DNA of 64,000 nucleotides, from positions 2,947,002 to 3,011,001 of the forward strand of contig NZ_CP014619.1 in NCBI RefSeq assembly GCF_002074055.1. Direction: 5' to 3'. This document shows positions 29,159-37,913 of the stretch, piece after piece. Numbering within the stretch: the first letter of the stretch is position 1; every line of letters begins with the position of its first letter. The position numbers and the translations under genes are program-made. The DNA comes from Frondihabitans sp. 762G35 (GTDB lineage Bacteria > Actinomycetota > Actinomycetes > Actinomycetales > Microbacteriaceae). The notes beneath the pieces are model-generated. The model did no database searches. It saw only the letters and a list, made by a program, of their open reading frames with translations, and was not told where the DNA came from.

Positions 29159-30409
29159 GTGAAGAAGAAGACTCTCGTGACCGCGGGTGCGCTGGCCCTG
29201 CTCGCGGCCCTGCCGGCGGCCGCGCTGCCATCCCGAGTCGCTGCGGATGCCGACCCCTTGTCCGCCTCCGTCTCCGCCGCCGATGCCGGCGACGCGGCCC
29301 GGGAGAACGTCCGCATCAGCGGGCACCTCGTCCTCGCCACGTCCTCGGCGACCACGTGGGTCGCCGTCCCGCTGCCGCTCGCCGACGGAACCGTCGCGCC
29401 GTCCTCGTGGCCCACGAAGGACGAGGCCGACGCCCGCGCGGCGACCTGGGCGGTGCCCGCCCCCGGCTCCACCGGCCCCGTCTCCCGGAGCATCTACTGC
29501 CTCAACGCCGGGCTTCCGGGAACGCGGGTCTTCGCCTCCTCCTGCACCGGCGCCCCGGAGCAACAGTTCCGGCTGGCCGAGGTGAGCACGGGCTGGGGCC
29601 TCCGTTCGCAGGCGTCCGACTCGTCGTTCGTCGCCTACGACGCCGCGACACGGACCCTCGTCACCCGCGGAGCCGAGTCCGCCGGCGGCGTGCAGCTCGA
29701 CCTCCTCAAGCTCGCCGGCGAGAAATCCCTCAGCGTCGAGAACGTGACGCCCGGCGCCGTCGGCGAGGCGACCGTCTCGGGCCTCGCCACTCGAGGCGCC
29801 TCCGTGACGGTCGACGGGAGGGCGGGCATCGAGGAGGCGGATGCGGACGGACGCTGGACCACGACCCTCCGCGACCTCCCGCGCGCCGGCGAGACCATCA
29901 CTGTGCGACAGACGATCGACGGCCTCGACAGGGGCTCGGTCGAGGCCGTGATCCCACCGTGGCCCGGACCGGACGCTCCGATGGCCACAGTCGTCTTCGA
30001 CGACGACGTGCACCGGAACGCGCTGATCCAGGGCACGGCGGAGGACGGCGCCACCATCGTCATCCGTTCGGGCGACGAGGTCGTCGCCGAGACGCAGGCC
30101 ACCGCAGGAGCCTGGTCGACCGAACTCCCGCCCCTCGGAGTCGGCGAGCACCCCGTGCTCGTGACGCAGGAGATCGACGGACTCGTCTCTCCCGCCACGA
30201 CCGTCCCGATCGACTTCGGTGACGCCGTGAGCATCACGTCACCCGACGACGGGAGCGATGTCCCGAGCGACGGCCGTGTCGACGTCACCGGCCGGGGTGA
30301 CCCCGGCTCGATCATCGAGCTGCGCGATAACGGAGAGGTGGTCGCGACGACGACCGTCGGCCCGGACGGCACCTGGTCGGTCCCCGCTGTCGAACTCGAA
30401 GGGCGCTGA
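29159..30409 (+). CDS. secreted protein with lectin-like head and Ig-like repeats (short paralogue)
   Basis: A 416-residue protein from GTG 29159, with GAGGAAGG about 10 bp upstream. The signal peptide is KKKTLVTAGALALLAALPAA with an AxA-type site. A head domain (about residues 35-190) contains SIYCLNAGLPG and a second Cys about 16 residues on, resembling the head of the paralogues at 32776 and 36191. Two to three Ig-like repeats follow, with NG-W turns such as DADGRWTTTLRDL and PDGTWSVPAVEL. The protein stops at VELEGR, exactly where the paralogues continue into [12 protein letters not shown], so it lacks their conserved C-terminal half. It is probably released or wall-associated; no LPxTG motif is seen. 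Confidence 0.7.
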   Translation: MKKKTLVTAGALALLAALPAAALPSRVAADADPLSASVSAADAGDAARENVRISGHLVLATSSATTWVAVPLPLADGTVAPSSWPTKDEADARAATWAVPAPGSTGPVSRSIYCLNAGLPGTRVFASSCTGAPEQQFRLAEVSTGWGLRSQASDSSFVAYDAATRTLVTRGAESAGGVQLDLLKLAGEKSLSVENVTPGAVGEATVSGLATRGASVTVDGRAGIEEADADGRWTTTLRDLPRAGETITVRQTIDGLDRGSVEAVIPPWPGPDAPMATVVFDDDVHRNALIQGTAEDGATIVIRSGDEVVAETQATAGAWSTELPPLGVGEHPVLVTQEIDGLVSPATTVPIDFGDAVSITSPDDGSDVPSDGRVDVTGRGDPGSIIELRDNGEVVATTTVGPDGTWSVPAVELEGR

Positions 30410-32599: not shown

Positions 32600-32620
32600 G
32601 AGCCGGTCCTTTCGAAAAAA

Positions 32621-32641
32621 CTTGAGTGGATCAGGCTCAAG
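32621..32641 (-). promoter_or_regulatory. HAIR element, HspR operator of clpB
   Basis: CTTGAG (32621-32626) and CTCAAG (32636-32641) form the HspR-associated inverted repeat. On the minus strand it directly follows a TAAACT minus-10 box (32640-32645 region) and precedes clpB by 21 bp, so bound HspR would block transcription. The same TAAACTTGAGCCTG junction occurs before dnaK. Confidence 0.85.
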
Positions 32642-32712
32642 TTTACGCCGAGGTCTCAAGAAGCGCCAGATGCGGGGCAGCAGCCAACTCTTGCTCATTT
32701 CGAATGTAGTCT

Positions 32713-32730
32713 GTAGTATTTCAGTATCAA
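32713..32730 (+). promoter_or_regulatory. AT-rich promoter element of Ig-like gene
   Basis: GTAGTATTTCAGTATCAA lies 45 bp before the start at 32776. The 12-mer GTAGTATTTCAG recurs exactly, in the same orientation to its gene, before the paralogue at 37846. It is also related to elements in the polysaccharide locus. Confidence 0.5.
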
Positions 32731-32775: not shown

Positions 32776-34701
32776 ATGTCCAAGAAACGTTCCCTGAGCG
32801 CGCTCGGCGCGACTCTCCTCGCCGGCGTCACGCTGGCCACCATGGTCGCCCCGGCTGCCAACGCAGCTCCCGCGTCAACTCCCGCCGCATCGACGAGCGC
32901 GGCGCAACTCATCAAGCTGTACTCGAAAGTCGGCGATTTTCAGTGGGCGACCGGAACCCAGCAGCCGATTGGTGGAGCGAACAACCTCGAACTCACCACC
33001 GTCACTCTTCAGGCCGATGCAGAGAAGCGCGCAGCTCTTTTGGAGGTCGTTCCCCGCGAGGGAAACTTCTTCAACCTGAAGGTCGTGAAGGGTAGCCAGG
33101 AAGAATGTCTCGCCGCATACAGCCCTCCTGCCGCGGTGACCTACCTCGGCCAAGACAAATGCGACAAGACTTCAGCCCTCTGGTCGCAGCCCAGCAGCGG
33201 AGTCTTTCGCTCGGCCGACGGCTGGTATCTGACGAATCAGAGTGTCGTCTACGGCTCCAGTACTCGATTCAACATGTCGAAGGACTCTGCGGATGCCGCT
33301 GAGTTTATCGACGCCAATGTTGGAGAGTCTCTGTCCGCGACCGGATCGTTTGACGGGGACAACGCCCAGCGGGCGACGATCAAGGGGACGGGCGCCGCGA
33401 ATGCGCCCATCACGATCAAGAACACCGCCGGTGAGGTCGTCGCGTCCGGCACCGCCGACGACAACGGCGCCTTCTCGATCCCCATCACGGCTCCGAACAA
33501 GGGCGGCGTCTATGCGCTGAACGTGACGCAGACCGTCGACGGCACCGAGTCTGCTGCCGTCAAGGTCGACCTCGACTACGGCAAGGCAGTCGCCATCTCC
33601 ACCCCCGCGAACAACGCCGACCACACCGCCGGCGAGGTCGCCATGACCGGCACCGGCACCCCCGGCGGCACGATCACCGTGTTCGACAACGCCGGCAGCA
33701 CGCCTATCGGTAACGCGACCGTCAACGCTTCCGGTGCCTGGGCTCTGAACACGTCCGCGCTGAACGCCGCCGAGCACAAGCTGGAGGTGAAGCAGCTGTC
33801 CAAGGGCAACAACACCACCACGTCGACGATCACCCTGAACCCCGGCGGCACCGTCACCCCGCCCGCACCCGGCATCGGATTCGAGGTCACCACCCCGAAG
33901 AACGACTCGACCATCGAAACCTCCGACAAGCAGGTCACCTTCACCGGCCGCGGCAACCCCGGCAGCAAGGTGACCATCATGAACGGCGCCCGCACCATCG
34001 GAAGCGTCGCCAGCGTCCCCGCCTCCGGAAACTGGTCGTTCACCGCGACGATGAACTACGCCGACTACAACCTCACCGCCTACAACAAGAAGGTCCCCAC
34101 CGGCGCCGTCACCAGCCAGCAGCCGCTCCACATCACCGTCATCGACGCCACGGCCGCTCGCCCGTTCGTGATCTCCACCCCCGCCAACAACTCCACCGTG
34201 GAAACGACCGACAAGTCGGTCCGCTTCTCCGGCACCGGCAACGCGGGCGGCAAGGTCACCATCATGAACAGCTCCCGCAACATCGGCACGGCTGACGTCG
34301 ACCAGAACGGCCAGTGGTCGTTCACCGCGACGATGAACTACGCCGACTACGATCTCACCGCCTACTACAAGAAGGTCCCCGCCGGCGCCGTCACCAGCCA
34401 GCAGGCACTCAAGATCACGGTCACCCCCGGCCAGCTCGGCTTCGCCATCGGCAGCCCTGCTACAGGCACCACGGTCGACAAGGGCAACATCAGCTTCACC
34501 GGTACCGGGAAGGCGGGTAGCACCGTCACCATCTTCCTTAATAGCTCCAAGCGCGGCTCCGCGATCACGGCTGCCGACGGAACCTGGACCGTGCCCGTGA
34601 CCGTGAACACTCCCGGCCAGTACGACTTCACCGTCTACTACAAGGCCAACCCCACCGACGCCTCAGCACCCAGCGTCGAGCACTCCCTCACGGTCCGCTA
34701 A
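32776..34701 (+). CDS. secreted multi-domain Ig-like surface protein (long paralogue)
   Basis: A 641-residue protein from ATG 32776. The signal peptide ends in [10 protein letters not shown]. The head domain (about 35-195) has [10 protein letters not shown], a second Cys in [12 protein letters not shown] and GWYLTNQ, a lectin- or ricin-like pattern by eye only. Five Ig-like repeats fill the rest, each with a G-x-G-N/T-P/A-G-x-K/T-V-T-I strand and an NG-x-W-S/T turn. The unit with [11 protein letters not shown] appears twice in direct orientation. Residues about 332-455 are almost identical to the facing paralogue at 36191. No LPxTG or membrane anchor is visible, so attachment to the wall would be non-covalent. 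Likely role: adhesin or matrix protein. Confidence 0.75.
33770..34140 (+). repeat. 371-bp inverted repeat, left copy
   Basis: This segment inside the long Ig-like gene matches 36470-36840 on the opposite strand with only six mismatches that I can find in 371 bp, including a 206-bp run of perfect identity (33892-34097). The arms are 2.3 kb apart. Both arms are in the same reading frame of their genes. Confidence 0.92.
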
Positions 34702-34734
34702 CCCGGGCACCACGGCGACACCAGCACCACAACC

Positions 34735-34762
34735 GGTGGCGGGGAGTCACACCCCCGCCACC
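34735..34762 (+). terminator. hairpin terminator after long Ig-like gene
   Basis: GGTGGCGGGG (34735-34744) pairs perfectly with CCCCGCCACC (34753-34762). The sequence leading into it (ACACCAGCACCAC) and the stem are shared with the terminator of the paralogue at 36132-36157, so the duplication includes the 3-prime flank. Confidence 0.7.
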
Positions 34763-34791
34763 CCCTCACTTCAACCCACCCGGAGAACACC

Positions 34792-35241
34792 GTGCACAAG
34801 ACCCCGATCCTGACCATCGCCCTCGGCGCATCTCTCATAGCAGCCCTGGCCGGATGCACCACCGCAGCGACCACGTCGAACCCGACGTCCCCCGCTAGCA
34901 CCTCGACTCAGAGCCCGACCGCCGGCCCCACGATCACGAGCACGCCTGATGCCGACTACAAGGCACCATCCGGCATGTGCGAGAACGGGGAGGCGACCAT
35001 CATTCAGGATGTCTCGGACATCGCACTCCCCGAAGGCTGCGACATCGTCAACGTCCTCACGAACGGCAGCACCGTCGACCTGGGCCCCGTGAAGCAGCTC
35101 AACATCGAGGGCGAGAACAACACCATCACCGTCGAGAAGGTCGAGCACATCGGGATCTTCGGAACCGGCAACGACATCACCCACGGTGGTGAAGCAGCCG
35201 TCGACGACCAGGGCAGCAGCAATAAGACGACTCAGAAGTAA
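34792..35241 (+). CDS. DUF3060-like lipoprotein
   Basis: A 149-residue protein from GTG 34792. The signal peptide has the lipobox LAGC (Cys21), so it should be lipid-anchored outside the membrane. A Thr/Ser/Pro linker follows. The C-terminal half has short alternating beta turns (VDLGPVKQLNIEGENNTIT, VEHIGIFGTGNDITHGG) typical of DUF3060 beta-solenoid-like proteins. The role is unknown. It lies between the two facing Ig-like genes, so it sits within the segment that would invert if the 371-bp arms recombined. Confidence 0.78.
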   Translation: MHKTPILTIALGASLIAALAGCTTAATTSNPTSPASTSTQSPTAGPTITSTPDADYKAPSGMCENGEATIIQDVSDIALPEGCDIVNVLTNGSTVDLGPVKQLNIEGENNTITVEKVEHIGIFGTGNDITHGGEAAVDDQGSSNKTTQK

Positions 35242-35257
35242 CGATCGCAGATACAGG

Positions 35258-35286
35258 AAGGGCGCCTCCACCAGGAGGCGCCCTTT
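35258..35286. terminator. strong intrinsic terminator
   Basis: AAGGGCGCCTCC (35258-35269), loop ACCA, then GGAGGCGCCCTTT (35274-35286) forms a 12-bp stem with a short T-run within the right arm. It ends the lipoprotein transcript. Confidence 0.85.
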
Positions 35287-35330
35287 CGTCGGCCTGGGCA
35301 TCCTGCGGTCGCGAGAGCAATACTGGACCG

Positions 35331-35762
35331 ATGATCGACGTCGCTCTCGCCCGCTCCCTCGCCGAAGCCGGACTCCGCTGGCACCCCGCCACAGGAGACC
35401 GGTTCCTCATCGACACTGACGCCTTCGACGCGGAGGTCTTCACGATCAGCGAAATGACGATCGAGGCTCACACCTATCCGACCGGCACCGAACTCGGGTT
35501 CAACGGGACGACCGAGTGGGCCCTCGACTCCGTCTCGACCGACGACTCCCTCTGGCTCCCCCGCGAGGATCAGATGCGCGAGCTCCTCGGCCCCATCTTC
35601 CACGCCCTGATCCGCGGCGAGAGCGGCGACTACGAGGTGACGGTCACGATCGACGACGAGATCCAGACGTTCGCTTCACCGGATGCGGAAAACGCCTACG
35701 GCAATGCGCTCCTGGCCTACATCGATGCCTCGCTCCGGATCGAGAACGTGGAGCGGAGCTGA
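35331..35762 (+). CDS. conserved hypothetical protein
   Basis: A 143-residue soluble acidic protein. It begins MIDVALARSLAEAGLRWHP and contains GDRFLIDTDAFDAEVFTIS, GFNGTTEWALDSV and SLWLPREDQMRELL. I recall similar small proteins in Microbacteriaceae, sometimes labelled as pilus-assembly related, but nothing in the sequence supports that label. No membrane segment or signal peptide. It starts 45 bp after the terminator. Role unknown. Confidence 0.65.
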   Translation: MIDVALARSLAEAGLRWHPATGDRFLIDTDAFDAEVFTISEMTIEAHTYPTGTELGFNGTTEWALDSVSTDDSLWLPREDQMRELLGPIFHALIRGESGDYEVTVTIDDEIQTFASPDAENAYGNALLAYIDASLRIENVERS

Positions 35763-35871
35763 CAGCAGGACGAACCGTCCTCTTGCGCGGCGACCTGACC
35801 GGGGGCACACTGACTCCACCTCGACGAAGAGGCCGAGGCACGTGAAGACGAAACGCTATCGGGAGGCGTCC

Positions 35872-36045
35872 ATGTCGAAATCCAGCCACGAGACCAAGCG
35901 CGACGAACTGCGACAGGCGCAGGACGAACAGGAAGTTCGAGACGCCCTGCTGGGCGACGGAACCGAGCGCAACACCGCCTGGCTCTTCGAGCAGATCGAC
36001 GGCGGCCCGGCCACTACGAAGGCGAGCAAGCTCACCGACGTGTGA
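35872..36045 (+). CDS. small hypothetical charged protein
   Basis: A 57-residue protein from ATG 35872 with a GGGAGG site at 35861-35866. It is strongly charged and helical (HETKRDELRQAQDEQEVRDA) with a C-terminal FEQIDGGPATTKASKLTDV. A longer frame begins at GTG 35842, but the ribosome-binding site favours 35872. The family is not recognised. Confidence 0.5.
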   Translation: MSKSSHETKRDELRQAQDEQEVRDALLGDGTERNTAWLFEQIDGGPATTKASKLTDV

Positions 36046-36131
36046 GGAGACGGCCACCGCTGGCGATGCCCTGAACGTCTGCCCGTGAGGGCGTCGCTGG
36101 TTCGAGGTCGTCCCCCGGCGTAATCGACGAA

Positions 36132-36157
36132 GGTGGCGGGGATGTGTCCCCGCCACC
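36132..36157. terminator. hairpin terminator of facing Ig-like gene
   Basis: GGTGGCGGGG (36132-36141), loop ATGTGT, CCCCGCCACC (36148-36157) is a perfect 10-bp stem with the same arms as the terminator at 34735-34762. It serves the minus-strand gene ending at 36191 and may work for the small plus-strand gene too. Confidence 0.75.
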
Positions 36158-36190
36158 TCTGGTGGTGCTGGTGTTGCCGTCGAGTCCCGT

Positions 36191-37846
36191 CTAACGGACG
36201 GTGAGGGCGTGCTTGACGCTGGGAGCCGCGGCGTCGGCGGGGTTGGCCTTGTAGTAGACGGTGAAGTCGTACCGGCCGGGAGTGTTCACGGTCACGGGCA
36301 CGGTCCAGGTCCCGTCAGCAGCCGTCGTGGCCGTGCCACGCTTGGAACTGCCGAGGAAGACCGTGACCGTGCTGCCCGCCTTGCCGGTGCCGGTGAAGGC
36401 GAAGGTGCCCCTGTCGACCGTGGTGCCGGCGGCGGGGCTACCGACCGCGAAACCGACCTGACCGGGCGCGACGGTGATGTGGAGCGGCTGCTGGCTGGTG
36501 ACGGCGCCGGTTGGGACCTTCTTGTTGTAGGCGGTGAGGTTGTAGTCGGCGTAGTTCATCGTCGCGGTGAACGACCAGTTTCCGGAGGCGGGGACGCTGG
36601 CGACGCTTCCGATGGTGCGGGCGCCGTTCATGATGGTCACCTTGCTGCCGGGGTTGCCGCGGCCGGTGAAGGTGACCTGCTTGTCGGAGGTTTCGATGGT
36701 CGAGTCGTTCTTCGGGGTCGTGACCTCGAATCCGATGCCGGGTGCCGGCGGGGTGACGGTGCCGCCCGGGTTCAGGGTGACCGTCGACGTGGTGGTGTTG
36801 TTGCCCTTCGACAGCTGCTTCACCTCCAGCTTGTGCTCGGCACCGTCGAGGACCACGCCACGCGCCGTCCACGCACCCGTGGCGAGGACATCCGCGGTCG
36901 CGATGGCGGCGGGCTTGCCCGCCTCGCGGATCGTCACACGCCCCCCGGGCTCCCCACGACCCGAGAAGTCGAGGGCTCCGCCGGAATGCGCCGAGCCGTC
37001 GACAGGAGACGTGATGGTCACCTGGGCTCCGTAGTCGATGAAGACCCGAACCGGATCTGACACGGTTCCGCCCTGACCGAGGGTCTGAGTCACGTCGACG
37101 ATGTACGGCTGAGCCCGATGAGGAGCCGGGACCGACACCTCGAAGGAGCCGTCGGAGGCGGCCTCCGTCGACGCGACCACGTCGCCCGCGCTATTCCGCA
37201 GGATAACCTCCTCGAACGGCGATCCGCTGCCGAGGACCTTGGCGTCGACACCCAGGTCGTCGTCGAAGATGACGACGGCGTTGAGACCGTCCGCCGCTCG
37301 AACGTCGGCGTACGAGAAGAGCGCGGCATCGTCGGCGCTCCTGGAGAGAGCCAGGACGCCGAAACTCGCGGAGTTCCCCGTCGACGGAGACACCACGTCA
37401 GCGGTGAGCCACCACCCTGCACTACTCACGAAGAACCCGTCGTCCGTCTGAGTCCACCGGGCAGCCGCGTCGCTGCAGGAGCCGAACCCCAGAAAGGCAC
37501 TTCCGCTCGCTGTCGAGGGGACGAGGCACGAAGTCCAGTTCCGCGACTGCATCGTGAAAGCACCGCCGCCGACCGGCTTCACCGTGATTCGAGTCGCGAG
37601 GCGGACAGCCGTCTCAGCATCGCTGGGAACATGGCTGCTGAACGGTCCGTCGTACACCCGATCGGTCACGATCGTGTGATCGTTCAGGCTGTTCTCGTGA
37701 ACGAGTTTGATCGTCTTCTGGACGGGAGCGCGAAGCTTCGGTGCGGCATCGAGTGCCGATGCCGGAGAGGCGGCAGCGCCGGCCACGAGAGTGAGCCCGG
37801 CGAGGGCGGCCACGCCGAGGGCGAGGCCGCGAGGGAGATGTGACAC
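36191..37846 (-). CDS. secreted Ig-like surface protein (facing paralogue)
   Basis: A 551-residue protein from ATG 37846. The signal peptide ends near VAGAAASPASA. The head (about 40-200) has SCLVPSTASG, a second Cys in GFGSCSDAAARW and GWWLTAD, positions matching the head of the gene at 32776 although the rest has diverged strongly. Four Ig-like repeats follow. From about residue 335 the sequence [14 protein letters not shown] onward is nearly identical to the other long paralogue, and then a single final repeat ends in LTVR as there. It lacks the extra repeat unit. The promoter shares a 12-mer with the paralogue. Confidence 0.75.
   Translation of the reverse strand: MSHLPRGLALGVAALAGLTLVAGAAASPASALDAAPKLRAPVQKTIKLVHENSLNDHTIVTDRVYDGPFSSHVPSDAETAVRLATRITVKPVGGGAFTMQSRNWTSCLVPSTASGSAFLGFGSCSDAAARWTQTDDGFFVSSAGWWLTADVVSPSTGNSASFGVLALSRSADDAALFSYADVRAADGLNAVVIFDDDLGVDAKVLGSGSPFEEVILRNSAGDVVASTEAASDGSFEVSVPAPHRAQPYIVDVTQTLGQGGTVSDPVRVFIDYGAQVTITSPVDGSAHSGGALDFSGRGEPGGRVTIREAGKPAAIATADVLATGAWTARGVVLDGAEHKLEVKQLSKGNNTTTSTVTLNPGGTVTPPAPGIGFEVTTPKNDSTIETSDKQVTFTGRGNPGSKVTIMNGARTIGSVASVPASGNWSFTATMNYADYNLTAYNKKVPTGAVTSQQPLHITVAPGQVGFAVGSPAAGTTVDRGTFAFTGTGKAGSTVTVFLGSSKRGTATTAADGTWTVPVTVNTPGRYDFTVYYKANPADAAAPSVKHALTVR
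36470..36840 (-). repeat. 371-bp inverted repeat, right copy
   Basis: The reverse complement of this segment matches 33770-34140 with six mismatches, all of them silent or conservative (for example Ile/Val at one codon). Such identity, against much lower similarity either side, suggests recent duplication or ongoing gene conversion. Confidence 0.92.
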
Positions 37847-37895: not shown

Positions 37896-37913
37896 TTACA
37901 TCTGAAATACTAC
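37896..37913 (-). promoter_or_regulatory. AT-rich promoter element of facing Ig-like gene
   Basis: On the minus strand 37913-37902 reads GTAGTATTTCAG, identical to 32713-32724, followed by ATGTAA. It ends 55 bp before the start at 37846, a spacing close to that at the other gene. Confidence 0.5.

What the first reader, a model, noticed from the sequence alone, without database searches (positions are those of the whole stretch)
33770..36840. Near-identical 371-bp inverted repeats could swap the tails of two facing surface-protein genes
Seen: 33770-34140 and the reverse complement of 36470-36840 differ at six positions, with a 206-bp identical run. Each lies in frame in an Ig-like secreted-protein gene. 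Known: homologous recombination between inverted repeats inverts the segment between them. Inference: inversion would exchange the C-terminal parts (two extra repeats versus one) between two proteins with very different heads, giving a reversible switch or a gene-conversion engine for surface variation. The lipoprotein and two small genes ride inside the 2.3-kb segment.
Basis: partly seen in the sequence, partly recalled or inferred. Interest (0 to 1): 0.78.

Follow-up and report, generated by a model that had tools for sequence, protein, structure and literature searches.

The report
Two facing surface genes sharing DNA
Two neighbouring, oppositely oriented genes for secreted Ig-repeat proteins in a Frondihabitans-like bacterium share an almost identical stretch, best explained by DNA copied from one gene to the other during evolution; a reversible switch is possible but not shown.

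Summary
The pattern is a sharp mosaic: among codons for identical residues, synonymous differences are 30 of 49 in the heads, 5 of 120 in the arm and 20 of 73 in the last Ig domain. This points to copying between old paralogues (gene conversion). In all six other genomes of the genus, ClpB, Big, g143 and MT lie in the same relative order with no Big gene between g143 and MT. So B looks like the addition, and the segment between the arms lies in the ancestral orientation. No match to two recombinase families lies in the window. Both starts and a shared promoter-like element lie outside the arms. Inversion would exchange stalks only (547 and 645 aa by arithmetic). It is possible, probably rare, and untestable here because one genome of the species is held. 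Conversion is supported; the switch is not shown.

The parts
32776..34701 (+). Gene A, 641 aa: signal-peptide-like start (by eye), head (about 43-180) with predicted beta-trefoil-like fold, five Ig-like domains
   Evidence: ORF; Pfam Big_6, 5 stretches; model mean pLDDT 78; head model pLDDT 86, best matches beta-trefoil proteins at TM about 0.5
36191..37846 (-). Gene B, 551 aa: same layout with four Ig-like domains, facing gene A (B was not modelled)
   Evidence: ORF; Pfam Big_6, 4 stretches; alignment with A
33764..34140 (+). Arm in gene A: end of Ig2, linker, Ig3
   Evidence: 98% inverted repeat, identical core 33892-34097
36470..36846 (-). Arm in gene B: same part
34141..34422 (+). Ig4 unit of gene A, without counterpart in B; 77% identical to Ig3, 90% in the second half
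34423..34701 (+). Ig5 of gene A, 84% identical to the last domain of B
36191..36469 (-). Last Ig domain of gene B
34735..34762 (+). Hairpin after gene A
   Evidence: -23.7 kcal/mol, z -4.85
36130..36159 (-). Hairpin after gene B, similar to that after A
   Evidence: -27.1 kcal/mol, z -6.83
32713..32724 (+). Promoter-like element GTAGTATTTCAG upstream of A, outside the segment between the arms
   Evidence: 2 matches in the window, both exact, 0.01 expected; elements within 3 mismatches of its last 11 bases upstream of 7 of 12 relatives' Big starts, no chance control
37902..37913 (-). Same element upstream of B, outside the segment between the arms
34792..35241 (+). Lipoprotein-like gene with DUF3060, between the arms
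   Evidence: PF11259, E 6.9e-7
35331..35762 (+). g143, conserved gene of unknown function, between the arms
   Evidence: no Pfam match; conserved in relatives
35872..36045 (+). g57, small ORF between the arms; matched between g143 and MT in 3 of the 6 other genomes of the genus
   Evidence: no Pfam match

Best explanation
A and B are old, facing paralogues of a secreted protein family of the Microbacteriaceae (predicted beta-trefoil-like head, modelled for A only, on a stalk of bacterial Ig-like domains) in the chaperone neighbourhood. Ordinary homologous recombination between them has copied the stretch from the end of Ig2 through Ig3 from one to the other more recently than the rest (gene conversion; donor unknown), after an earlier common origin or transfer of the last domain and 3' hairpin. 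Shown: the mosaic, its clustering, the gene order of the genus, no match to two recombinase families in the window. Inferred: that the mosaic arose by conversion between these two copies, and that occasional crossovers would invert the 2.3-kb segment and exchange the two stalks in frame, at low frequency.
For: Synonymous differences: head 30/49, Ig1 17/32, rest of Ig2 13/19, arm 5/120, last domain 20/73; 0 of 20000 permutations as clustered. Sliding identity is 0.43-0.65 before 33764, 0.95-1.0 over most of the arm, and 0.73-0.97 over the last domain, with a near-identical patch at 34582-34653. Internal direct repeats of 81-98% identity in Big genes of several relatives show that alike neighbouring repeats are usual in the family. 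In the six other genomes of the genus no Big gene lies between g143 and MT. No PF00239 or PF00589 match in the window. Published rates for inverted near-identical genes in Salmonella fit rare conversion with some inversions (PMC8262849, PMC5485169; passages).
Against: The donor cannot be named. A single transfer of a cassette would leave the same trace as conversion. Five of the eight differences are C/G exchanges, so the copying is not very recent or left old sites unconverted. No event was seen directly, since no second strain of the species is held. A Big gene between g143 and MT is not unique in the wider family: 7 of 86 loci outside the genus's usual pattern have one, 5 in the direction of g143 and 2 opposite, so B could be an old copy kept here and lost elsewhere in the genus.
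Confidence: 0.75

Rival explanations
1. Reversible inversion switch: recombination between the arms flips the 2.3-kb segment often enough that cultures hold both orientations, exchanging the long and short stalks between the two heads.
For: 98% arms with a 206-bp identical core, 2.3 kb apart, in frame; products of 547 and 645 aa by arithmetic. Inverted near-identical genes do give inversions in Salmonella: 5 of 59 recombinants, and almost half of events at one tuf site (passages).
Against: No PF00239 or PF00589 match in the window; present gene order equals that of the six other genomes of the genus; starts and promoter-like elements lie outside the segment, so the effect would be small; 0 of 92 related loci (89 distinct) has an inverted repeat of 100 bp and 80%.
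Confidence: 0.12
2. Inverted duplication: B got its stalk and terminator by one duplication from A and the heads come from elsewhere, with no later exchange.
For: Similar hairpin and shared promoter-like element; no B-like gene at this place in the other genomes of the genus.
Against: Two different levels of divergence within the shared stretch (5/120 against 20/73 synonymous) suggest at least two events.
Confidence: 0.12
3. Selection alone keeps the Ig3 sequence identical.
For: The amino-acid sequence of Ig3 is identical in A and B over the 83 aligned residues.
Against: Synonymous sites are nearly identical too: 2 of 80 codons differ in Ig3, against 30 of 49 in the heads.
Confidence: 0.01

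Closest known systems
Salmonella tufA/tufB and kan-cassette recombination (PMC5485169, PMC8262849; passages read)
   Same: Inversely oriented near-identical genes recombine by conversion, RecA-dependent, with inversion as a by-product
   Different: There the genes are near-identical over their length and far apart; here only a 377-bp island is near-identical and RecA dependence is untested
Yeast flip/flop region (PMC9731477; abstract and section list read)
   Same: Homogenised inverted gene pairs flank an invertible segment
   Different: There both orientations are found; here one orientation in one genome
Lactobacillus acidophilus slpA/slpB inversion (PMC6176008; passages read, the 1996 paper only as a cited title)
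   Same: Two surface-protein genes interchanged by inversion of a chromosomal segment
   Different: There an active and a silent gene are interchanged; here both genes have a promoter-like element of their own and only stalks would be exchanged
Ureaplasma UU172/UU171 inversion (PMC3047005; abstract and section list read)
   Same: Inversion at repeats in surface genes, with chimeric genes proposed
   Different: There called site-specific and shown on genomic and protein level; here no matching recombinase is near and nothing has been seen to invert

Membership tests
Bacterial Ig-like repeat proteins (Pfam Big_6) | Ig-like domains over the curated cut-off | tested here: met
   A 110.1 and B 63.8 bits against 27.6
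Recombinase-driven invertible switch | A recombinase gene next to the invertible segment | tested here: not met
   No PF00239 or PF00589 match in the window; nearest is a resolvase fragment about 43 kb away. Other families were not searched
Inversion-based phase variation | Both orientations found in one strain or among strains | not testable with these tools
   One assembled genome of the species; no reads
Inversion-based phase variation | Inversion moves a promoter or start and so changes expression of A or B | tested here: inconclusive
   Starts and shared promoter-like elements of A and B lie outside the segment, which speaks against it; no expression data, and the lipoprotein gene and g143 would change neighbours
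Concerted evolution of paralogues by gene conversion | Island of near identity, synonymous sites included, between diverged paralogues | tested here: met
   5/120 against 30/49 and 20/73; 0 of 20000 permutations
Concerted evolution of paralogues by gene conversion | Paralogues within a genome more alike than the same segment between species | tested here: met
   A and B arms 98%; with 33764-34423 as query 3 of 398 family genomes matched at E 1e-10: the own one, and two with 61- and 95-bp stretches at 87 and 78% (2 candidates scored per genome)
Concerted evolution of paralogues by gene conversion | Conversion tracts that differ among strains | not testable with these tools
   No second strain of the species held

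The most novel reading that the evidence does not exclude
The facing pair is a slow stalk exchanger without a dedicated recombinase: crossovers in the Ig3 arm swap a longer and a shorter terminal stalk between two lectin-like heads while the lipoprotein gene and g143 change partner, so that natural populations of this species hold both arrangements; the inversions beside Big genes in Curtobacterium would be further products of such a process.
Probability: 0.12. Interest if true: 0.6.

Novelty: new member of a known kind. Interest (0 to 1): 0.36.

Why it matters
It shows the trace of DNA exchange between two facing secreted-protein genes of an environmental actinobacterium, in a chaperone neighbourhood where Big genes of close Curtobacterium species differ strongly in head and tail. 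If both orientations exist in nature, it would be a surface-protein exchange that needs no dedicated recombinase.

Tried and rejected
Looking for the other orientation elsewhere: the scan of genome contigs with protein B gave 23 pattern matches and no relative by tblastn. The arm DNA matched 3 of 398 family genomes.

Inverted pairs in relatives: one search tested the window slice and 92 related loci; only the window has an inverted repeat of 100 bp and 80% (E 1e-12, loci up to about 20 kb). Of 89 distinct loci (L064, L065, L072 dropped as repeats of L053, L054, L060), 86 hold g143, 41 of these a Big match, and 3 have Big matches in both orientations: L075, L087, L126. These Big counts are lower bounds: a Big gene in L127 was missed by the first tblastn and found.

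A Big gene between g143 and MT: 7 of 86 loci (L075, L076, L079, L100, L118, L136, L141), so that place is not unique to the window, though no other genome of the genus has it.

Inversions in Curtobacterium as support: 4 of 37 loci holding g143 and DnaK have the chaperone block inverted, all four Curtobacterium. Where compared, the ends lie beside lipoprotein, HspR or Big genes and are not shown to be inside Big repeats, so I do not count them as evidence for repeat-mediated inversion.

Naming the donor from third-position composition gave no answer. The second near-identical patch in the last domain (34582-34653) is only suggestive. Foldseek on whole A gave general Ig-domain matches at low TM.

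Full report
Observation. In 20 Markov resamples of the 10.5-kb region the longest exact inverted match was 13 to 18 bases; in the whole window all six exact inverted repeats of 30 bases or more link the same two genes. In the single-contig genome (3,409,251 bases) the arm gave three matches: the two arms and, at 80%, Ig4 of gene A (40 of 106 candidates scored).

The genes. A (641 aa) and B (551 aa) face each other. Both begin with what looks like a signal peptide (by eye). Both have Big_6 domains above the curated cut-off. The model of A shows a beta-rich head and five Ig-like domains. A model of A's head alone (mean pLDDT 86) has as best Foldseek matches interleukin-1 family proteins and, lower down, several beta-trefoil lectins, at TM about 0.5 (that these share the beta-trefoil fold is partly recalled). 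A lectin-like role is therefore a guess, and B's head was not modelled. No Pfam family reached its cut-off for either head (one match at E 0.086 for A, none for B). The arm covers the end of Ig2, the linker and Ig3. A then has Ig4 and Ig5, B only the counterpart of Ig5. Neither protein shows an obvious cell-wall anchor by eye, so surface display is assumed.

Mosaic. Among codons for identical residues, synonymous differences are 30 of 49 in the first 180 residues of A, 17 of 32 in Ig1, 13 of 19 in the rest of Ig2, 5 of 120 in the arm and 20 of 73 in the last domain; 0 of 20000 permutations gave runs as long. Identity rises abruptly at 33764 and falls beyond the arm. The last domains are related at an intermediate level, and similar hairpins follow both genes. 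At least two transfers at different times are the simplest reading. The donor is unknown.

Neighbourhood and relatives. Loci found with g143 include Frondihabitans sucicola and Frondihabitans sp. PhB188, whose contig lengths equal those of G006 and G005, two of the six genomes of the window's genus. So the window is from Frondihabitans, as far as these labels go. In all six other genomes the relative order is ClpB, one or more Big genes, g143, MT, with no Big match between g143 and MT; a lipoprotein match stands before g143 in 4 of 6 and g57 after it in 3 of 6. Gene B therefore looks like an addition of this lineage, and the segment between the arms is in the ancestral orientation. Outside the genus 7 of 86 loci do have a Big gene between g143 and MT, so loss elsewhere in the genus is not excluded. 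Only one genome per species is held, so orientation within the species could not be tested.

Mechanism. No PF00239 or PF00589 match lies in the window; the nearest is a resolvase fragment about 43 kb from the repeat. A 12-base promoter-like element occurs upstream of A and B and nowhere else in the window (2 matches, 0.01 expected); looser copies stand upstream of 7 of 12 relatives' Big starts examined, without a chance control. These elements and the heads lie outside the segment, so inversion would change only stalks: 547 and 645 aa. In Salmonella, recombination between inverted near-identical genes is RecA-dependent and rare (conversion about once in 10^5 to 10^6 generations is stated); 5 of 59 recombinants carried an inversion in one study, up to a quarter in work it cites, and almost half of events at one tuf site in another (PMC8262849 and PMC5485169, passages read). 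Those repeats differ in length and spacing, so the rate here may differ.

Wider view. In 4 of 37 related loci holding g143 and DnaK, all four Curtobacterium, the chaperone block is inverted relative to g143; in L126 against L127 the inverted block is 4.46 kb at 96.7% identity. The ends are beside Big or lipoprotein genes but not shown to be in repeats. In three close Curtobacterium genomes (L126, L127, L124) the dnaK-adjacent Big gene keeps its first 40 residues (90-95%) and a central block (78-100% over residues 281-400), while residues 41-200 are 18-37% and those beyond 480 are 10-46% identical (L126's protein holds masked residues in its tail). So strong change of heads and tails occurs in the family; by what route is open.

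Novelty. Gene conversion between inverted paralogues, and inversions from it, are known. The literature searches listed no paper on this gene family in Frondihabitans; I saw only the listings (15 of 68 papers, 10 of 35), so this is no proof of absence. I file it as a new member of a known kind.

Noticed in passing
L126, L127, L124 with L144-L146: The dnaK-adjacent Big gene of three close Curtobacterium genomes keeps its start and a central block but differs strongly in head and tail.
   Followed up: partly
L076, L077, L100, L126: The DnaK block is inverted relative to g143 in these four Curtobacterium loci, of 37 loci holding both genes.
   Followed up: partly
window 29159-30409 +: A third Big gene (true start not determined), convergent with ClpB, with three Big_6 stretches; the arm DNA is not found in it.
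   Followed up: no
window 32620-32642: An inverted repeat upstream of ClpB resembles the HspR-binding HAIR element (name recalled); similar sequences stand upstream of several relatives' Big genes next to ClpB.
   Followed up: no
L052 11459 +: A near copy (one mismatch) of the A/B promoter-like element lies upstream of the lipoprotein gene in G002.
   Followed up: no
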